From: Gammaproteobacteria bacterium
GTDB taxonomy: Bacteria > Gemmatimonadota > Gemmatimonadetes > Longimicrobiales > Gaopeijiaceae
Length of the DNA stretch: 64,000 nt
Assembly: GCA_028819075.1 (NCBI GenBank)
Contig: JAPPMM010000045.1
Span: 1-64,000 of the forward strand
Direction of reading: 5' to 3'
The notes below the pieces were generated by a model. That model saw only the letters and a program-made list of their open reading frames with translations, ran no database searches and was not told where the DNA came from. This document shows, piece after piece, positions 7,428-14,664 of this stretch (its first letter is position 1; every line of letters begins with the position of its first letter). The position numbers and the translations under genes are program-made.

Positions 7428-8819
7428 TCATCCCCCGAGGTCCACTATCCGGAGATTCCGCCAGCGCACCTTGATCCCGCCGCCATCGTGGATCTGGAGC
7501 GCGATCGACCCCTCGGCTTCGCCGATCTGTGCATCCTCGAAATCCACCATGCGGGTCCCGTTCAGCCAGGTCGTGACCCGGTCGCCCACCGCCCGGACCC
7601 GCAGCGTGTTCCAGTCGCCCATCTTCAGCGCAGCGTCGAGCGCCGGATCGGGCTGCACCAGCCAGCCGCGCCCGTAGGACTCGTAGATCCCGCCGGTGAA
7701 GAGTCCCGGCGGCGCCACTTCGGCCTGCCAGCCGGTCACGACCGTGCCCTCCACGCTGGAGCGGAAGAACACACCGCTGTTGCCGTCCGCCTCCTGCCTG
7801 AAGTCGACGGTCAGATCGAAGTCTTTAAATAACTGTTCTGTCGTCAGGTAGCCGTATTCGGCATCAGGGCCGCTTTCGCACACCAGTTCCCCGTTCTCGA
7901 CATACCAGCGCTCGGTTCCGTGCACGCGCCAGCCGTCGAGGTCCTCGCCGTTGAAGAGCGAAACCGGCCCCAGCGGAAGAATCTTGATGTTGCGATAGAA
8001 GACGTTGCGCCCGTGGTCCTGGAGCCCGATGGGACCCGAGGCCGCGCGCCCGTAGCGCGGATAGGGCGCGAACTTGCTGGCCCCGACCAGTGCCTCCCAC
8101 TCCGGCGAGCCGAGCTCGTACTCCACCGTCTTCACGCCGTTCAGCCAGTGCTCCACATGGTTGTTCGCGATGCGGATGCGGCCCTCGTTCCACTCGCCGG
8201 GGCCGTGCAGGGTCTTCTCGCCCGCGGCGTGCAGGTCGTAGTTGTCGCCGGTGAGGTGGGTGCGCATGTCCATCGTGCCCATCTCGATATACGCGGTGTC
8301 GTCGAGCACCTGATACTCGGGGGCGTTGAACCAGATCTCGGCGCCTTCCTCCTCGATCACGCGGTAGAGGACGCCGCTGTTGGCCACCTCCGAGAGCATG
8401 AACTCGAATCTGAGGTCGAAGTCCGCGAAGGACTCGGTGGTGACGATGTCGCCGCCCACCGGGACATCGGGATCCACGGCGGTTGCTCCGACCACAAGCA
8501 CGCCGTCGATCACCGCCCAACCCGTGTCGGGGAAGGACTCGCGGTTGTAGCCGCGCCAGCCATCCGTGGTCTCGCCGTCGAAGAGGAGGCGCCAGCCGGC
8601 GTCGCGCTCGGCGTCGGTGAGGGTGTTGGGGGCTGCAGCCTGTGCCGTCCCCGGAGCGGCCATGTCGGAATCGGGCGTGGTCTGCTCCGGAGCGTCGGCG
8701 GCATCTGCGCACGCCGCGGCCAGGACGCACCCCGCGAACAGCGCCACCGCGAGCAGCCCGCTGACTTGCGATCCCGCTCTTCCTCCAGCCATGAAGCCAT
8801 GTCTCATCGTCTTACGCAT
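7428..8819 (-). CDS. Lipoprotein with two DUF1080 (3-keto-disaccharide hydrolase) domains
   Basis: 463 aa from the ATG at 8819, chosen because it starts a signal peptide with a lipobox-like LAAAC (Cys about 37). Two tandem DUF1080 domains follow, each opening with the family phrase: LLFDGETTDGWRGYN (first) and LFNGEDLDGWRVHG (second), each with a late WNxxxIRxxxxxxxxWLNG strand pair. DUF1080 has a concanavalin-like fold; characterised members hydrolyse 3-keto-glucosides made by Gfo/Idh-type oxidoreductases. An exported Gfo/Idh/MocA protein is encoded nearby (13161-14582), so a joint role in extracytoplasmic sugar oxidation and cleavage is plausible but inferred. It ends 16 bp before the HAD gene. 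Confidence 0.87.
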   Translation of the reverse strand: MRKTMRHGFMAGGRAGSQVSGLLAVALFAGCVLAAACADAADAPEQTTPDSDMAAPGTAQAAAPNTLTDAERDAGWRLLFDGETTDGWRGYNRESFPDTGWAVIDGVLVVGATAVDPDVPVGGDIVTTESFADFDLRFEFMLSEVANSGVLYRVIEEEGAEIWFNAPEYQVLDDTAYIEMGTMDMRTHLTGDNYDLHAAGEKTLHGPGEWNEGRIRIANNHVEHWLNGVKTVEYELGSPEWEALVGASKFAPYPRYGRAASGPIGLQDHGRNVFYRNIKILPLGPVSLFNGEDLDGWRVHGTERWYVENGELVCESGPDAEYGYLTTEQLFKDFDLTVDFRQEADGNSGVFFRSSVEGTVVTGWQAEVAPPGLFTGGIYESYGRGWLVQPDPALDAALKMGDWNTLRVRAVGDRVTTWLNGTRMVDFEDAQIGEAEGSIALQIHDGGGIKVRWRNLRIVDLGG

Positions 8820-8835
8820 TTGTGTATTCCATCCA

Positions 8836-11800
8836 TCAAGGCACCGGTTCCGGCAATCCATAGCTGACCAGCACGCGCTCGCGAGGCACGGCCCTGGAAC
8901 GCCCGTCAGCTGCCACCGTCGCACCGGCCGCTTCGGCGGCCTCGCCCCGCAGGATGGACCGGATCCGTCCGGTTGCGCGGTCCGTCACGATGGCCACCGG
9001 CGACGCGCGCGTCTCCCGGTCCAGCGTCGCGGTGCCTTCCGGTCCGGAGAGCACGATGCGCTCCAGTGCGGCGATGCGATCCTCGGCAAACGGGAGAAGG
9101 AAGAAGAAGCTGCCGCCGCCCTCCGAGACCATCTCCATGTCGAAGTCGAGCGCGAACGCGCGGCTGCCATCCGTGGAAAAGCCTTCGACGCGATAGGGAC
9201 CGGACCCCGAGGGCAGCTGCGCCGGCGCGTCGAGCGCGAACGCGGGATCCAGGTGAAGTTGGCCCTCGGCGCTCACGTGGCCGCGCAGCAGCAGCCGGCT
9301 TCCCCGGGGTTCGTCCCGGGCGGCCAGAGCGCGTGGGCTGGTCTCCGCGCGGAGCCGGTACTCGAGCGCCTTCCTGAAGTTGTAGTCGCTGATCCATTGC
9401 GGATGGCAGTAGGACATCAGGTCGTGCGTCGAGGAGTCCACCAGCTCCTCGGATCGGGCGTCGTAGCCGAGCACGCCGATACTGCCGTCCGGATAGGGGT
9501 AATCCGGATCGATCTGCCATGGATTCCCGCAGGGCGAGTGCATGAGGCTCATGCTGTGACCCAGTTCGTGCGCGAAGACCTCGGCATCGGGGACGCCGAG
9601 CCCGACCCGGCCCTCCACCAGGGCGATCCCCCGAATGCCTTCGTCTCCGTCGCGGTTCACCACGCCATACCAGTATCCGCGGCCGCCCTCGGCCTTCCGG
9701 ACCAGCTCGATGTCCTCGAGGATGACGATCCATTCCGCGCCCTTCGAGGCATCCGGGGCCGATGCGATTCTGAGCGGCTCGCGCACGGTCAGGTTGAGTT
9801 CACCGACCGGCAGCACAGCCCGCATGAACTTCACCGGCGGAGCTTCGGCGTCCTTGACCCATTCCCGCACGTTCGCGTCCGCGCTGGATCCGGTCACGAC
9901 GGGTACGATGGTGAGATCCAGGGGCGGCAACTCGCGCACGTCGAGGGGAACCCGCACTTCATCCAGCGTCGCTCTGGGCATGGTGCTGTCGGGATCGATC
10001 CGCACGGCCATCTCGACTCCGGGACGCAGCGCCGCCGCCGGGATCGCAGCTTGATACCACTGGTCCAGTTGCCCTGGAAGGCTCTCGGCCAGGCCGCGGG
10101 ACGATTCAAGCGCCATGTCGGCCGCGTGGGCCTCGCTGCCATCCACGACGAACGCGGCGCGGGCACTCGGCCTGAAGTCGTTGGCCCGGTCCGCGGTGGC
10201 CAGAACCCGCACAAGCCCGGGACGCCCGGCGATGAGCGGAACCCCGCCGCCGACGCCCTGGGTGGCCTGCGACAGGTGTGCTTCCGCGACTGACACCGAG
10301 AAGATCCCGTCGCAGGTCGGCCCGGAGCGGGTCTCCACCGACTCGAGCCAGGTCTGGAACCATGCCACCTCGGGGGCGCAGGCGCCGCTGTTTCTCCAGT
10401 TGAAGTCGGAAAGCGAACTCAGGCTGGTCAGGATGCCTGGGAGCGCGCCTCCCAGTTCGTTGTCGGACAGGTCCAGGCGTTCCAGCGTCCCGAGCTGCGC
10501 GAGATCGCGTGGGACCGGTCCCGAAAACCCGTTGCCCGACAGGTCGAGGGCCTCGAGTTCCAGCAGGTTTCCGAGGTCCGGGGGCAGACGGCTCGTCAGC
10601 GCGTTGCCCTCCAGGTCCAGACGCTTCAGGTCCAGGAAGTCGCCCACCGCGGGAGGGAGCGTGCCCGAAAGCCCGTTGTCGGGGAGGTCCAGCGCCGTGA
10701 GCAGGCTGTCCTCCACGGTCACGCCGAACCACGAAGCCACGGGTGCATCCCTGAGCCAGTTCGCGTTGTTGGTCCAGCCCGCACCGCCGGTCGCCTCGAA
10801 GAACGCCGTGAAGATCTCGCGCGGCGGGAGCGTACAGCCAGGGCCTCCCTGGTGGTTGAGGATACTCGCCAGCCATGACTGGAATACGCGATCGCGCGGG
10901 GCGCACAGGGCGGTGGCCTGCCAATTGAAGTCGTCCAACCGGACCTGCATGAGTTCGCGGGGAAGCGCCCCGGTGAGACCGGCGTTTCTGAACACCGAGA
11001 GGTACTCCAGGTTCGGCAAATTCCCGAGCTGGGGCGGCAGTGCGCCGGTCAGCAGATTGTTGCCCACCGCCAGCGATTCCAGGTTCGTCAGGCGGCCGAG
11101 TCGCGGCGGGATCAGGCCGAAGAGCCGGTTGGTGCCGAGGCTCAGCCGGACCAGTCCGGTCATCCGCGTAACGCTCGTGGGTATGGGCCCGGTCAGGAAG
11201 TAGTTGCTGGCGAGATCGAGGAATTCCAGGTCGTCCAGGTCATCCATCCACGCGGGGATGCCTCCTTCGAACTGGTTGCCGGACAGATCCAGGTGGCGCA
11301 GTTGGCGAAGCTGCCGGACGACCGAAGGAATCGGGCCGTCGAGCGAGTTGCAGGTCAGCGACAGGTATTCGAGCGCGCGGAGCCTGGCGAATGCGGACGG
11401 GATCGTGCCGGTGAACTTGTGTCCCCGGAGATCCAGCTCCTTCAGGCGGACCAGATTCCCGAGTTGCGGCGGGAGCCGTCCCGAGAGCACATACCGCGGA
11501 CGCGGGGGCGTGAGCGTGAGATCGTAGCTCACCGCGAGGTTCAGGCTCTCGAGTCGGATCAGGTTGCCCAGCTCGGGTGGAAGCGTGCCCGTAAGCCGGT
11601 TTCGCGAGAGCGACAGTGTTTTCAGGTTCGCGAGCTTTCCCAGTTCCGGCGGGATCGACCCCGACAGTTCGTTCGAGTCGAGAGAGAGCGTCTCGAGATT
11701 GGCAAGTTCGCCGAGTTCGGGCGGAATGGGTCCCGCCAACCGGTTGCCACCGTTCCGGAGGCCGGTCGCAAAGCTGAGCGGCGCACCCATCGGGATGTCG

Positions 11801-13161
11801 GTCACCAAGCCGGCTCCGTGCTCGCGGCCTGCGTCGGTGCGCCTCGCCCACGAGAGCCAATGCAGGCTTCCGCCTCCCCGTGCGGATCCGGACCAGCCGA
11901 TGTCGCTTCCGTTGCGCGCACTCGACTCGGGAGGACTGGACGGCCGATAGCACCAGGTCTGGGGGACCGTAGCGGCGTCGAGCAGGAGCTCCCTGAGCTC
12001 ATCGAGGCGACCGAGTTCGGGCGGAATGTGCCCCTCCAGGTTGTTGGCGACCAGGTCAAGACCGACGACCCGTCCGTCAGCGTCGGTATCGACACCGTAC
12101 CAGTCCCCCAGCGGCGCGTCGCTGAGCCAGTTGCGGTTGTTCCTCCAGAAACGGCCTTCGGTCGCGTCGTACACGGCTTCGAGGATCGCGCGGTCCTTGG
12201 CGGCGCCCGCAAGCAGGCTCACCGTCACCGCCGCGCTTCCCGCGACCGATGCGGTCGTGGCCGTCACCACGCCGGTCCCTTCACGTACCGCGGTCACTAG
12301 GCCCGTGGCGCTCACGCGCGCCGCCCCGCGGTCGTTCGACCACTCGAATTCCATGTCGGGCACTTCCGCCCCGTTCGCGTCCAGCGCCCGGGCAGCGAGC
12401 TGCGCCGTGGTGCCGACGGAGAAGAGCGTCACCCAGCCAGGCAACACCTGCACCTCCGCCACGGCCTGTTCCACGTTCACCGTCGCCTCGCCGGACACCG
12501 TCCCGGTGGTGGCCGTCACCACCGCGCTCCCGTTCCTCACCGCCGTCACCAGGCCGTCCCTGTCCACCGCAGCCACCGAATCGTTGCTCGACCACTCGAA
12601 CACGTGTGTCCCCGGCACCCCCCGACCTTGCGAGTCGAGGGCCTCGGCCTCCAGCCGCAACGTGTCCCCGATGGCAATCAGCGTGGCCGAGTCGGGCGAC
12701 ACCCGTACCTGCGCCACCATCTGCTCGACGGTCACGGTCGCGACCCCCGTCGCCGCGCCGCTCGCGGCCGTCACCACCGCGCTCCCGTTCCCGATCGCCG
12801 TCACCAGGCCGAAACCGTCCACCCGCACCACCGACGCGTCGGTGGTCGTGTACGCGATCGGAACCCCGGTCATCGGGTCACCGTTCTGGTTGAGCACCGT
12901 GGCGGCGAGTCGAATCGTGTCGCCCAGCGCGTCCAGCGTCACCGACGAGGGTTCCAGGGTGACGGTCGTGGCGACCAGCCCGGGCGGCGGGGGCGGAGCC
13001 AGCACCGCGGGCACTTCGTCTCCGCAGTTGACGATCAGGCACAGGATGGCTGCCAGGCAGAGGACTCTCGAGCGGCGGTAGTTCGCCGCCCGGGCCGTCC
13101 CTCTCGCCGGATCGGGTCCAGCCGGCACGGATGTCATCCCGCTCGTCGGAGCCAGATCCAT
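8836..13161 (-). CDS. Giant lipoprotein: Big2 repeats, plant-type LRRs and a metzincin-like protease domain
   Basis: 1441 aa from ATG 13161, whose start overlaps the oxidoreductase stop (TGATG). An alternative ATG at 13137 sits closer to the signal peptide. The lipobox is LIVNC (Cys about 46). In order: a Pro linker; three bacterial Ig-like (Big2) repeats, each with VxxDxxGLVTAxxxG; an LRR cap (AVYDATEGRFWRNNRNW); many LRRs of the plant type LxGxIPxxLGxLxxL; a second cap (FFEATGGAGWTNNANW) with more LRRs; a linker. Then comes a zinc-protease motif HELGHSMSLMH at about residue 1198, followed by HDLMSYC, a possible Met-turn. It is probably a surface adhesin/protease. The substrate is unknown. 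Confidence 0.85.
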   Translation of the reverse strand: MDLAPTSGMTSVPAGPDPARGTARAANYRRSRVLCLAAILCLIVNCGDEVPAVLAPPPPPGLVATTVTLEPSSVTLDALGDTIRLAATVLNQNGDPMTGVPIAYTTTDASVVRVDGFGLVTAIGNGSAVVTAASGAATGVATVTVEQMVAQVRVSPDSATLIAIGDTLRLEAEALDSQGRGVPGTHVFEWSSNDSVAAVDRDGLVTAVRNGSAVVTATTGTVSGEATVNVEQAVAEVQVLPGWVTLFSVGTTAQLAARALDANGAEVPDMEFEWSNDRGAARVSATGLVTAVREGTGVVTATTASVAGSAAVTVSLLAGAAKDRAILEAVYDATEGRFWRNNRNWLSDAPLGDWYGVDTDADGRVVGLDLVANNLEGHIPPELGRLDELRELLLDAATVPQTWCYRPSSPPESSARNGSDIGWSGSARGGGSLHWLSWARRTDAGREHGAGLVTDIPMGAPLSFATGLRNGGNRLAGPIPPELGELANLETLSLDSNELSGSIPPELGKLANLKTLSLSRNRLTGTLPPELGNLIRLESLNLAVSYDLTLTPPRPRYVLSGRLPPQLGNLVRLKELDLRGHKFTGTIPSAFARLRALEYLSLTCNSLDGPIPSVVRQLRQLRHLDLSGNQFEGGIPAWMDDLDDLEFLDLASNYFLTGPIPTSVTRMTGLVRLSLGTNRLFGLIPPRLGRLTNLESLAVGNNLLTGALPPQLGNLPNLEYLSVFRNAGLTGALPRELMQVRLDDFNWQATALCAPRDRVFQSWLASILNHQGGPGCTLPPREIFTAFFEATGGAGWTNNANWLRDAPVASWFGVTVEDSLLTALDLPDNGLSGTLPPAVGDFLDLKRLDLEGNALTSRLPPDLGNLLELEALDLSGNGFSGPVPRDLAQLGTLERLDLSDNELGGALPGILTSLSSLSDFNWRNSGACAPEVAWFQTWLESVETRSGPTCDGIFSVSVAEAHLSQATQGVGGGVPLIAGRPGLVRVLATADRANDFRPSARAAFVVDGSEAHAADMALESSRGLAESLPGQLDQWYQAAIPAAALRPGVEMAVRIDPDSTMPRATLDEVRVPLDVRELPPLDLTIVPVVTGSSADANVREWVKDAEAPPVKFMRAVLPVGELNLTVREPLRIASAPDASKGAEWIVILEDIELVRKAEGGRGYWYGVVNRDGDEGIRGIALVEGRVGLGVPDAEVFAHELGHSMSLMHSPCGNPWQIDPDYPYPDGSIGVLGYDARSEELVDSSTHDLMSYCHPQWISDYNFRKALEYRLRAETSPRALAARDEPRGSRLLLRGHVSAEGQLHLDPAFALDAPAQLPSGSGPYRVEGFSTDGSRAFALDFDMEMVSEGGGSFFFLLPFAEDRIAALERIVLSGPEGTATLDRETRASPVAIVTDRATGRIRSILRGEAAEAAGATVAADGRSRAVPRERVLVSYGLPEPVP

Positions 13162-14582
13162 CAGGCGAGTCTCATCGCGTCGGGATCCCAGCGCACGATC
13201 CGGTCCTCGAAATAGCTGAGGTTGCACGCCAGCGCCGGAGCCGCCGCGCGCAGGCCGAAGACGGCATCCTCGATGACCGGCGGGCCTCCGCGGATCGCCT
13301 GGAAGAAGTTGAAGAAGTGATCGACGTGCGCGCCCCGGTAGCCGCGCTCGACCTCATAGCGGGCCTCCGCCGGCGGAAGCATGCGCACGCGCGCGGGGAG
13401 ACCGCCTTCGCCCGCCGCCGCCTCGGCCATCTTCTCCTGCGAGAAGGCGTCCATGGGATCGACCGCTACGTTCTTGCGCAGCACCACGTCGGTCCAGGTC
13501 ACGTCCATGGCGCCCTCGCTTCCCACCAGCCGAAGGAAGGTGCTGCCCGAGGTGCCGTCCACGAAGTTGACGCGCAGCGAAAGATTGAACCCCGGATGCG
13601 CGTCCGTCTCCGGATAGTCGAAGACGCCGAGGAGCACGTCCGGCACCTCCCGCCCGTCCTTCCAGTAGCGCAGCCCTCCCGCGGCCTGGATGCGCGTGGG
13701 TCCACGCGAAGAGACCACGAAGTGGAGGCTGGAGAAGAGGTGGACGAAGAGGTCGCCGGCGACCCCCGTGCCATAGTCGCGATAGTTGCGCCAGCGGAAG
13801 ACCCGCAGGGGGTCGTAGGGCCGTTCGGGGGCCGGACCCAGGAAGCGCTCCCAGTCGACGGTCTCCTCCGAGGCGTCGGGCGGGATGGGGTACTGCCATG
13901 CCCCGATGGGATCGTTGCGCGCCCAGAAGCCCTCCGCATAGTTGAGATGCCCGATGGCGCCCTGCTCGTACAGCTCCTTCGCCTTCTCGTTGCCGAGCGA
14001 GCTCATCCCCTGACTGCCCACCTGGAATACGCGTCCCGATTCCTCCTGGGCGCGGATCAGATCGTGGCCTTCGGCGATGTCGTGCACCATCGGCTTCTCG
14101 CAGTAGACCGCCTTCCCCGCCCTGAGCGCGTCAATGGAGATGGGCTGATGCCAATGGTCAGGCGTGCCCACGATGACCGCGTCGATGTCGTCTCGGACGA
14201 GGACTTCCCGGTAGTCACGGGTGGTGAAGATGTCGCCATGGCGCTCGCGGGCAGCGTCGAGGCGCCCGTCGAAGATGTCGCAAGCGGCCACGAGTTCGAC
14301 GCCGGGGATGCGCAGCGCCGTGTCCACGTCGGCAATGCCCATCCCGCCCGCGCCGATGACGGCCAGGCCGACGCGGTCGGAGGGGGCAACCTGACCGGGC
14401 GGAATCGGTTCCCGGGACAGCGTCCGGCGGACGGTTCGACTTCCTTCGGCTGCAAGCGCCGAAGGGAGACCCGCGGCGAGTGCGGACCCGGCTACCGCGG
14501 ACTTCACGAAGTCCCGGCGGGTCCGGGAGCGAGGTTCGGATCTTGACAGTGAACGGGGCTTCGTTCTTCCGGTTTCGGTCAT
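13161..14582 (-). CDS. Tat-exported Gfo/Idh/MocA family oxidoreductase
   Basis: 473 aa from ATG 14582. A Tat signal (RTRRDFVKSAVAG, about residues 20-32) precedes a Rossmann domain with GLAVIGAGGMGIADV and then the conserved EKPMVHD segment with the catalytic-region lysine. The C-terminal alpha/beta domain is typical of glucose-fructose oxidoreductase and inositol dehydrogenase relatives. Such proteins are exported folded with tightly bound NAD(P). The likely substrate is a sugar or polyol, not identifiable further. The stop codon overlaps the start of the giant LRR lipoprotein by one base. Confidence 0.88.
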   Translation of the reverse strand: MTETGRTKPRSLSRSEPRSRTRRDFVKSAVAGSALAAGLPSALAAEGSRTVRRTLSREPIPPGQVAPSDRVGLAVIGAGGMGIADVDTALRIPGVELVAACDIFDGRLDAARERHGDIFTTRDYREVLVRDDIDAVIVGTPDHWHQPISIDALRAGKAVYCEKPMVHDIAEGHDLIRAQEESGRVFQVGSQGMSSLGNEKAKELYEQGAIGHLNYAEGFWARNDPIGAWQYPIPPDASEETVDWERFLGPAPERPYDPLRVFRWRNYRDYGTGVAGDLFVHLFSSLHFVVSSRGPTRIQAAGGLRYWKDGREVPDVLLGVFDYPETDAHPGFNLSLRVNFVDGTSGSTFLRLVGSEGAMDVTWTDVVLRKNVAVDPMDAFSQEKMAEAAAGEGGLPARVRMLPPAEARYEVERGYRGAHVDHFFNFFQAIRGGPPVIEDAVFGLRAAAPALACNLSYFEDRIVRWDPDAMRLA

Positions 14583-14664
14583 GATGAAAACGCGTGTGGA
14601 AGTCCGTGCGAGAGCGCTGTTCGCCAACGCTTGCGTCCGACAACCTAATTACACGTCGATCCGG

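What the first reader, a model, noticed from the sequence alone, without database searches (positions are those of the whole stretch)
8836..13161. Giant Big2-LRR-metzincin lipoprotein
A single chain joins three Ig-like repeats, a long plant-type LRR domain with two separate cap segments, and a zinc protease motif (HELGHSMSLMH with a possible Met-turn HDLMSYC). LRRs usually bind proteins, so this may be a substrate-guided surface protease. The combination is not one I recognise.
Basis: partly seen in the sequence, partly recalled or inferred. Interest (0 to 1): 0.6.

Follow-up and report, generated by a model that had tools for sequence, protein, structure and literature searches.

The report
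LRR-targeted StcE-type surface protease
A lipoprotein of a sponge-associated bacterium joins a plant-style leucine-rich-repeat binding domain to a mucinase-type zinc protease; it is one of about 18 such genes in this genome, and the same design has spread through several phyla of sponge symbionts, which gives a concrete possible job to their 'eukaryotic-like' repeat proteins.

Summary
Window 8836-13161 (-) is one intact 1441-aa ORF: lipoprotein signal, three Big_2 domains, two capped plant-type LRR cassettes, and a C-terminal zinc-metalloprotease module. The HExxH lies in a real protease fold. Pfam calls Peptidase_M66 above its cut-off, and an AlphaFold2 model (pLDDT 82) has StcE as best PDB match (E=1.4e-13), far ahead of other metzincins.

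It is not a one-off. The genome has 19 such protease domains in 18 ORFs, all with LRRs N-terminal to the protease, plus two fragments. All 9 other genomes of the genus carry 4-21 copies. The window gene has a syntenic, full-length, purifying-selected ortholog in each, in a tight cluster with a Tat-exported glycoside-3-dehydrogenase-like enzyme and a 3-keto-disaccharide hydrolase. Named carriers are mostly sponge-symbiont MAGs (Gemmatimonadota, some other phyla). Single-copy relatives elsewhere in the order lack LRRs. Three further LRR lipoproteins end in a different, leishmanolysin-like metzincin.

Best reading: a family of surface glycoproteases whose LRR arm selects the target. Protease identity is well supported; LRR guidance and an O-glycoprotein substrate are inferred. 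No positive selection was seen on the LRR face. I found no published description of the LRR-M66 fusion. New variant of a known kind.

The parts
8836..13161 (-). Whole gene, 1441-aa lipoprotein: Big_2 x3 - LRR cassettes x2 - StcE/M66-type metalloprotease
   Evidence: translation, Pfam, syntenic orthologs
13024..13077 (-). Signal peptide and lipobox (residues 29-46, lipid Cys46, followed by GDE)
   Evidence: sequence, conserved in 9 orthologs
12226..12966 (-). Three Big_2 Ig-like domains (residues 66-312), presumed stalk
   Evidence: Pfam, own HMM
10834..12192 (-). LRR cassette 1 (residues 324-776): N-cap, plant-type repeats, two-Cys C-cap
   Evidence: solenoid predicted with high confidence
11749..11970 (-). 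'Island' inserted in LRR cassette 1 (residues 398-471); conserved in position, most variable main domain, no confident structure
10312..10821 (-). LRR cassette 2 (residues 781-950): N-cap, repeats, C-cap
8842..10299 (-). StcE/M66-like module (residues 955-1440): beta-rich domain, metzincin core, beta-rich domain
9538..9570 (-). Zinc motif HELGHSMSLMH (residues 1198-1208)
   Evidence: H, E, G, H, H invariant in 19 paralogous domains
9406..9423 (-). Met-turn DLMSYC (residues 1247-1252)
   Evidence: D, M, Y, C invariant in 19 paralogous domains
13161..14627 (-). Tat-exported Gfo/Idh/MocA oxidoreductase related to glycoside 3-dehydrogenases; its TGA overlaps the ATG of the protease gene (TGATG)
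   Evidence: synteny in 9 relatives
7428..8819 (-). 3-keto-disaccharide hydrolase lipoprotein (PF06439), starts about 17 nt after the protease gene
   Evidence: synteny in 9 relatives

Best explanation
The gene makes an outer-membrane, probably surface-displayed lipoprotein. The Big_2 domains lift it off the membrane. The LRR solenoid binds one particular protein partner, probably on sponge cells, in sponge matrix or on other mesohyl residents. The StcE-type zinc protease at the tip cuts the bound protein or its neighbour. By kinship with StcE, and because the gene sits between two enzymes of the 3-keto-glycoside pathway, the likeliest substrates are O-glycosylated (mucin- or proteoglycan-like) proteins, with released glycans processed by the neighbouring enzymes. 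Across the genome the same protease is repeated on different LRR arrays, giving a set of surface proteases with different fixed targets. Shown: ORF, domains, StcE-like predicted fold, conserved catalytic residues, purifying selection, synteny, paralog expansion. Inferred: surface exposure, activity, LRR-directed targeting, O-glycoprotein substrate, sponge-derived targets.
For: M66 above the Pfam cut-off and in most paralogs. Model pLDDT 82 with StcE (3ujz) at E 1.4e-13; the next metzincins are at about 2e-5. Catalytic residues invariant in 19 domains. About 18 copies here and 4-21 in all genus members. Fixed order Big_2(0-7)-[Ncap-LRR-Ccap](1-4)-protease; LRRs precede 92 of 109 protease domains. 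Single-copy relatives in the wider order have Ig-like or FN3-like N-termini and no LRR. LRR modules are also joined to a leishmanolysin-like metzincin, three genes, so LRR plus surface protease arose more than once. Conserved TGATG-coupled gene cluster with glycoside-3-dehydrogenase-like and 3-keto-disaccharide hydrolase genes. Named carriers are mostly sponge MAGs (jk18x = Caribbean Ircinia, PMC9531527; Rhopaloeides odorabile sampled in PMC8163846). StcE (M66) is a mucin-cleaving O-glycoprotease (PMC7542363).
Against: No enzymatic or binding data. Pfam M66 covers only the catalytic core (61 residues). The usual metzincin Gly of HExxHxxGxxH is Ser here, though Gly in close paralogs. No sign of diversifying selection on the LRR concave face (ratios 0.16 and 0.23). 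The lipobox has Asn at -1. Surface rather than periplasmic location is not shown. The 3-keto-glycoside neighbours may be a lineage accident; other sampled copies have different neighbours.
Confidence: 0.62

Rival explanations
1. Nutritional glycoprotease: the protein is mainly a scavenging enzyme that feeds the 3-keto-glycoside pathway, and the LRR only anchors it to abundant matrix glycoprotein or glycan without selecting a target.
For: Conserved, translationally coupled cluster with glycoside-3-dehydrogenase-like and 3-keto-disaccharide hydrolase genes in 10 genomes; strong purifying selection and no diversification of the LRR face.
Against: About 18 paralogs with different LRR arrays are more than a scavenging enzyme needs; sampled paralogs do not share these neighbours.
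Confidence: 0.2
2. Adhesin with self-release: the LRR and Big_2 parts are an adhesin of the 'eukaryotic-like protein' type, and the protease trims or sheds adhesins to control attachment.
For: Recent paralogs sit in a duplicated cluster between an FN3-array protein and an SdrD_B/CarboxypepD_reg stalk protein; eukaryotic-like repeats including LRRs are enriched in sponge symbionts (PMC8163846).
Against: The window copy has no such neighbours; StcE kin act on foreign O-glycoproteins.
Confidence: 0.1
3. Pseudoenzyme: the M66 module is a binding domain without protease activity.
For: Metzincin Gly replaced by Ser at HExxHxxSxxH in this copy.
Against: All catalytic residues and the Met-turn invariant in 19 domains; the catalytic core is among the most constrained parts (dN/dS 0.14).
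Confidence: 0.05

Closest known systems
StcE (MEROPS M66), secreted O-glycoprotease of enterohaemorrhagic E. coli; PDB 3ujz
   Same: Metzincin core with HExxH and Met-turn; best fold match, alignment spanning the whole module.
   Different: StcE is a T2SS-secreted protein (PMC7542363); the present protein is a lipoprotein with N-terminal Big_2 and LRR domains. Sequence identity in the fold alignment is 14%.
Plant LRR receptor kinase ectodomains (GSO1, MIK2, FLS2, BRI1)
   Same: Plant-type LRR consensus LxxLxLxxNxLxGxIPxxLGxL and strong sequence match; an island insert in the solenoid, as known for BRI1 (from memory).
   Different: No kinase or transmembrane helix; bacterial caps; the island shows no tested homology to that of BRI1.
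LRR 'eukaryotic-like proteins' of sponge symbionts (PMC8163846, PMC9531527)
   Same: LRR proteins enriched in sponge-associated MAGs.
   Different: There counted as repeats; here many are shown to be fused to metzincin proteases.
Leishmanolysin-like (M8) metzincins
   Same: Three LRR lipoproteins of this genome end in a domain whose only credible PDB match is leishmanolysin (E 7e-4).
   Different: A different protease family from the window gene.

Membership tests
Peptidase M66 (StcE family) | Pfam PF10462 above gathering score | tested here: met
   23.2 bits vs 20.6, but only profile positions 188-249 of 306; listed paralogs range from about 19 to 36 bits, some just below the cut-off
Peptidase M66 (StcE family) | StcE-type fold | tested here: met
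   AlphaFold2 model, best PDB match 3ujz, E 1.4e-13, probability 1.00; TM only 0.43/0.36 over the multi-domain chain
Peptidase M66 (StcE family) | Cleavage of O-glycosylated mucin-type substrates | not testable with these tools
   needs purified protein
Metzincin clan | HExxHxxGxxH plus Met-turn | tested here: met
   HExxH, third His and Met invariant; the Gly is Ser in this copy, Gly in close paralogs and most single-copy relatives
Bacterial lipoprotein | Signal peptide with lipobox Cys | tested here: met
   LIVN-C46; atypical Asn at -1, Cys conserved in all orthologs, VVSC in one
Plant-type LRR protein | Tandem 24-residue LxxLxLxxNxLxGxIPxxLG repeats with caps | tested here: met
   LRR_1 E 9e-39; solenoid pLDDT about 80-95
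Sponge-symbiont eukaryotic-like proteins | Encoded by sponge-associated bacteria | tested here: inconclusive
   A same-species genome matches RHO2_bin_50 and most named carriers are sponge MAGs; the window's own sample source is not stated

The most novel reading that the evidence does not exclude
A horizontally shared family of LRR-guided surface glycoproteases, expanded to about 20 copies per genome in sponge symbionts, is a major part of what the 'eukaryotic-like' LRR proteins of these bacteria do: each copy edits a different glycoprotein of the sponge or its community.
Probability: 0.35. Interest if true: 0.78.

Novelty: new variant of a known kind. Interest (0 to 1): 0.6.

Why it matters
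LRR and other eukaryotic-like repeats are a recognised signature of sponge symbionts, and their function is largely unknown. Here most plant-type LRR proteins of one genome turn out to be the front part of a metzincin protease. That changes the question from 'host mimicry by repeats' to a specific, testable one: which sponge or community proteins does each LRR hold, and does the protease cut them. It would also widen the StcE/M66 family from secreted enzymes to modular, tethered, possibly targeted proteases of symbionts, of use as O-glycoprotein tools.

Tried and rejected
1) Island as frameshift or insertion artefact: rejected; same position in all orthologs and in L039. 2) Arms-race diversification of the LRR face: not supported in orthologs or recent paralogs. 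3) HExxH by chance or a non-protease fold: rejected. 4) Unique architecture: rejected. 5) 'Gammaproteobacteria' as carriers: some such records (RHO2_bin_50; BD2-11 bin43) belong to the window's own species or genus by kinship, so their titles are misleading, and the phylum counts on the tree are affected. Transfer between phyla rests on long contigs (Latescibacterota 2.5-2.9 Mb; a 3.5-Mb Pseudohongiella chromosome). 6) LRR-plus-protease model: LRR good, protease part poor, probably because the alignment was shallow (12 rows); not used for the protease. 7) The phylum-wide search scored only three candidates per genome, so it shows presence, not copy number. 9) NCBIfam gave only sub-threshold LRR effector matches. 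10) A strict lipobox pattern found only 32 of 115 ORFs, but many of those are truncated and the pattern missed clear cases, so no rate is claimed.

Full report
WHAT IS THERE. The finding's ORF is real and its ends are exact: ATG at 13161, stop at 8836, minus strand, 1441 aa. Pfam finds three Big_2 domains, many LRR_1/LRR_8 repeats and Peptidase_M66 (23.2 bits, cut-off 20.6). The closest PDB sequences to the middle part are plant LRR receptor ectodomains. Models built here resolve two complete LRR cassettes, each with an N-cap and a two-cysteine C-cap (residues 324-776 and 781-950), and a C-terminal module at 955-1440. A 75-residue island interrupts cassette 1. It is present in all orthologs and at the same place in the 52% identical homolog L039, so it is not a sequencing error. 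It is the most variable main domain (dN/dS 0.42) and has no confident predicted structure.

IS IT A PROTEASE. The C-terminal module was aligned across the 19 copies in the same genome: the zinc motif residues and the Met-turn D-x-M-x-Y-C are invariant. An AlphaFold2 model from this alignment reached pLDDT 82 and pTM 0.84. Its best match in the PDB is StcE (E 1.4e-13, probability 1.00); other metzincins (profragilysin, ADAM8, snake-venom enzymes) follow at about 2e-5 and weaker. The usual Gly of HExxHxxGxxH is Ser in this copy but Gly in close paralogs and in most of the single-copy relatives.

A FAMILY, NOT A SINGLETON. The window's genome (4.4 Mb) holds 19 such protease domains in 18 ORFs plus two fragments. 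All 18 ORFs have LRRs before the protease; one ORF of 1998 aa carries two LRR-protease units in tandem. All nine other genomes of the genus have 4-21 copies; most of the rest of the family and order have 0-4 (one other genus has 11). Of 109 protease domains from this genome and the named loci, 92 have LRRs in front, 14 do not and 3 are truncated. With rare exceptions the order is Big_2, then one to four capped LRR cassettes, then the protease. Single-copy relatives from elsewhere in the order and family carry Ig-like or FN3-like N-termini and no LRR, which suggests that the LRR was added in the expanded lineages; the tree is unrooted, so the direction is inferred.

WHO CARRIES IT. Named loci are mainly Gemmatimonadota MAGs from sponges. 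The jk18x bins come from Caribbean Ircinia (PMC9531527), and PMC8163846 describes MAGs from Rhopaloeides odorabile and other reef sponges; that the RHO bins come from Rhopaloeides is my inference from their names. RHO2_bin_50 is of the window's own species, and the loci compared with it are 99.6-99.98% identical. Other carriers include Latescibacterota, Rhodothermota, Bacteroidota, an Opitutales bin, Acidobacteriota and a Pseudohongiella chromosome. In the tree several of them lie inside Gemmatimonadota groups with strong support, for example Opitutales L073 beside L077/L114 at 100, as transfer between co-resident symbionts would give; binning errors could explain the short contigs.

CONSTRAINT AND CONTEXT. 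The window gene has a full-length syntenic ortholog in all nine congeners (83-98% identity). Selection is purifying in every structured domain (dN/dS 0.15-0.29; island 0.42; signal region 0.66). The exposed concave positions of the LRRs are also constrained (0.16 in orthologs, 0.23 in recent paralogs), so each LRR array seems to have a fixed partner and I see no sign of an arms race. Upstream is a Tat-signal Gfo/Idh/MocA enzyme most like glycoside 3-dehydrogenases (142 bits, below that model's cut-off of 750); its stop overlaps the start of the protease gene as TGATG. Downstream, about 17 nt away, is a 3-keto-disaccharide hydrolase lipoprotein. This order is kept in the relatives. It suggests that glycans on the cleaved proteins are processed by the same gene cluster; that link is inference.

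INDEPENDENT PAIRING OF LRR AND PROTEASE. Three further LRR lipoproteins of the genome end in a different HExxH domain that is alike among the three (33-34% identity) and matches only leishmanolysin in the PDB with any credibility (E 7e-4); Pfam M8 is below its cut-off. That LRR arms are joined to two distinct metzincin classes favours a functional pairing (binding plus cutting) over accident.

LITERATURE. No held paper contains both 'peptidase M66' and 'leucine-rich repeat', and related searches gave nothing on such a fusion. Enrichment of LRR repeats in sponge symbionts is known (PMC8163846; PMC9531527), as is the O-glycoprotease activity of StcE (PMC7542363). The library is open-access only, so absence is not proof.

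VERDICT. Observation confirmed. The interpretation 'surface protease' is well supported as to protease and lipoprotein, with surface display inferred; 'substrate-guided' is plausible but untested. The combination is a new variant of a known kind (StcE-type M66 protease) that is frequent in one ecological group. Confidence in the full mechanism 0.62; interest 0.6.

Noticed in passing
L139:2703-5249 (-) (own contig C45, about 9 kb beyond the window end), L142:2064-5072 (+), L148:3-3467 (+): LRR lipoproteins of the same genome that end in a leishmanolysin-like metzincin instead of the M66-like one.
   Followed up: partly
L026:353-13478 (-); similar layout in L030: Some recent paralogs sit in a three-gene cluster: SdrD_B/CarboxypepD_reg stalk protein, LRR-protease, giant FN3 + F5/8C protein; parts of the neighbourhood recur around the genome and in relatives at about 85-90% DNA identity.
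   Followed up: partly
L031:397-6390 (-): A 1998-aa ORF with two complete LRR-protease units in tandem; the counterpart in L059 is split into two frames.
   Followed up: no
L145:2857-4833 (+): A close copy of the Big_2-LRR-protease type that stops inside the third LRR cassette, before any protease: probably a decayed gene.
   Followed up: no
L046, L050, L064 (RHO2_bin_50); L067, L092, L103 (BD2-11 bin43): Records titled or classed as Gammaproteobacteria/Pseudomonadota that belong to the window's own species or genus: misleading taxonomy in public records.
   Followed up: partly
window 11749-11970: Island insert in the LRR solenoid, conserved in position but variable in sequence, superficially like the island of plant BRI1; function unknown.
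   Followed up: partly
L023:8329-11958 (+): One family member (and near-identical copies in several sponge MAGs) carries a different LRR class (LRR_8/LRR_5-like, without IPxxLG) in front of the same protease.
   Followed up: no
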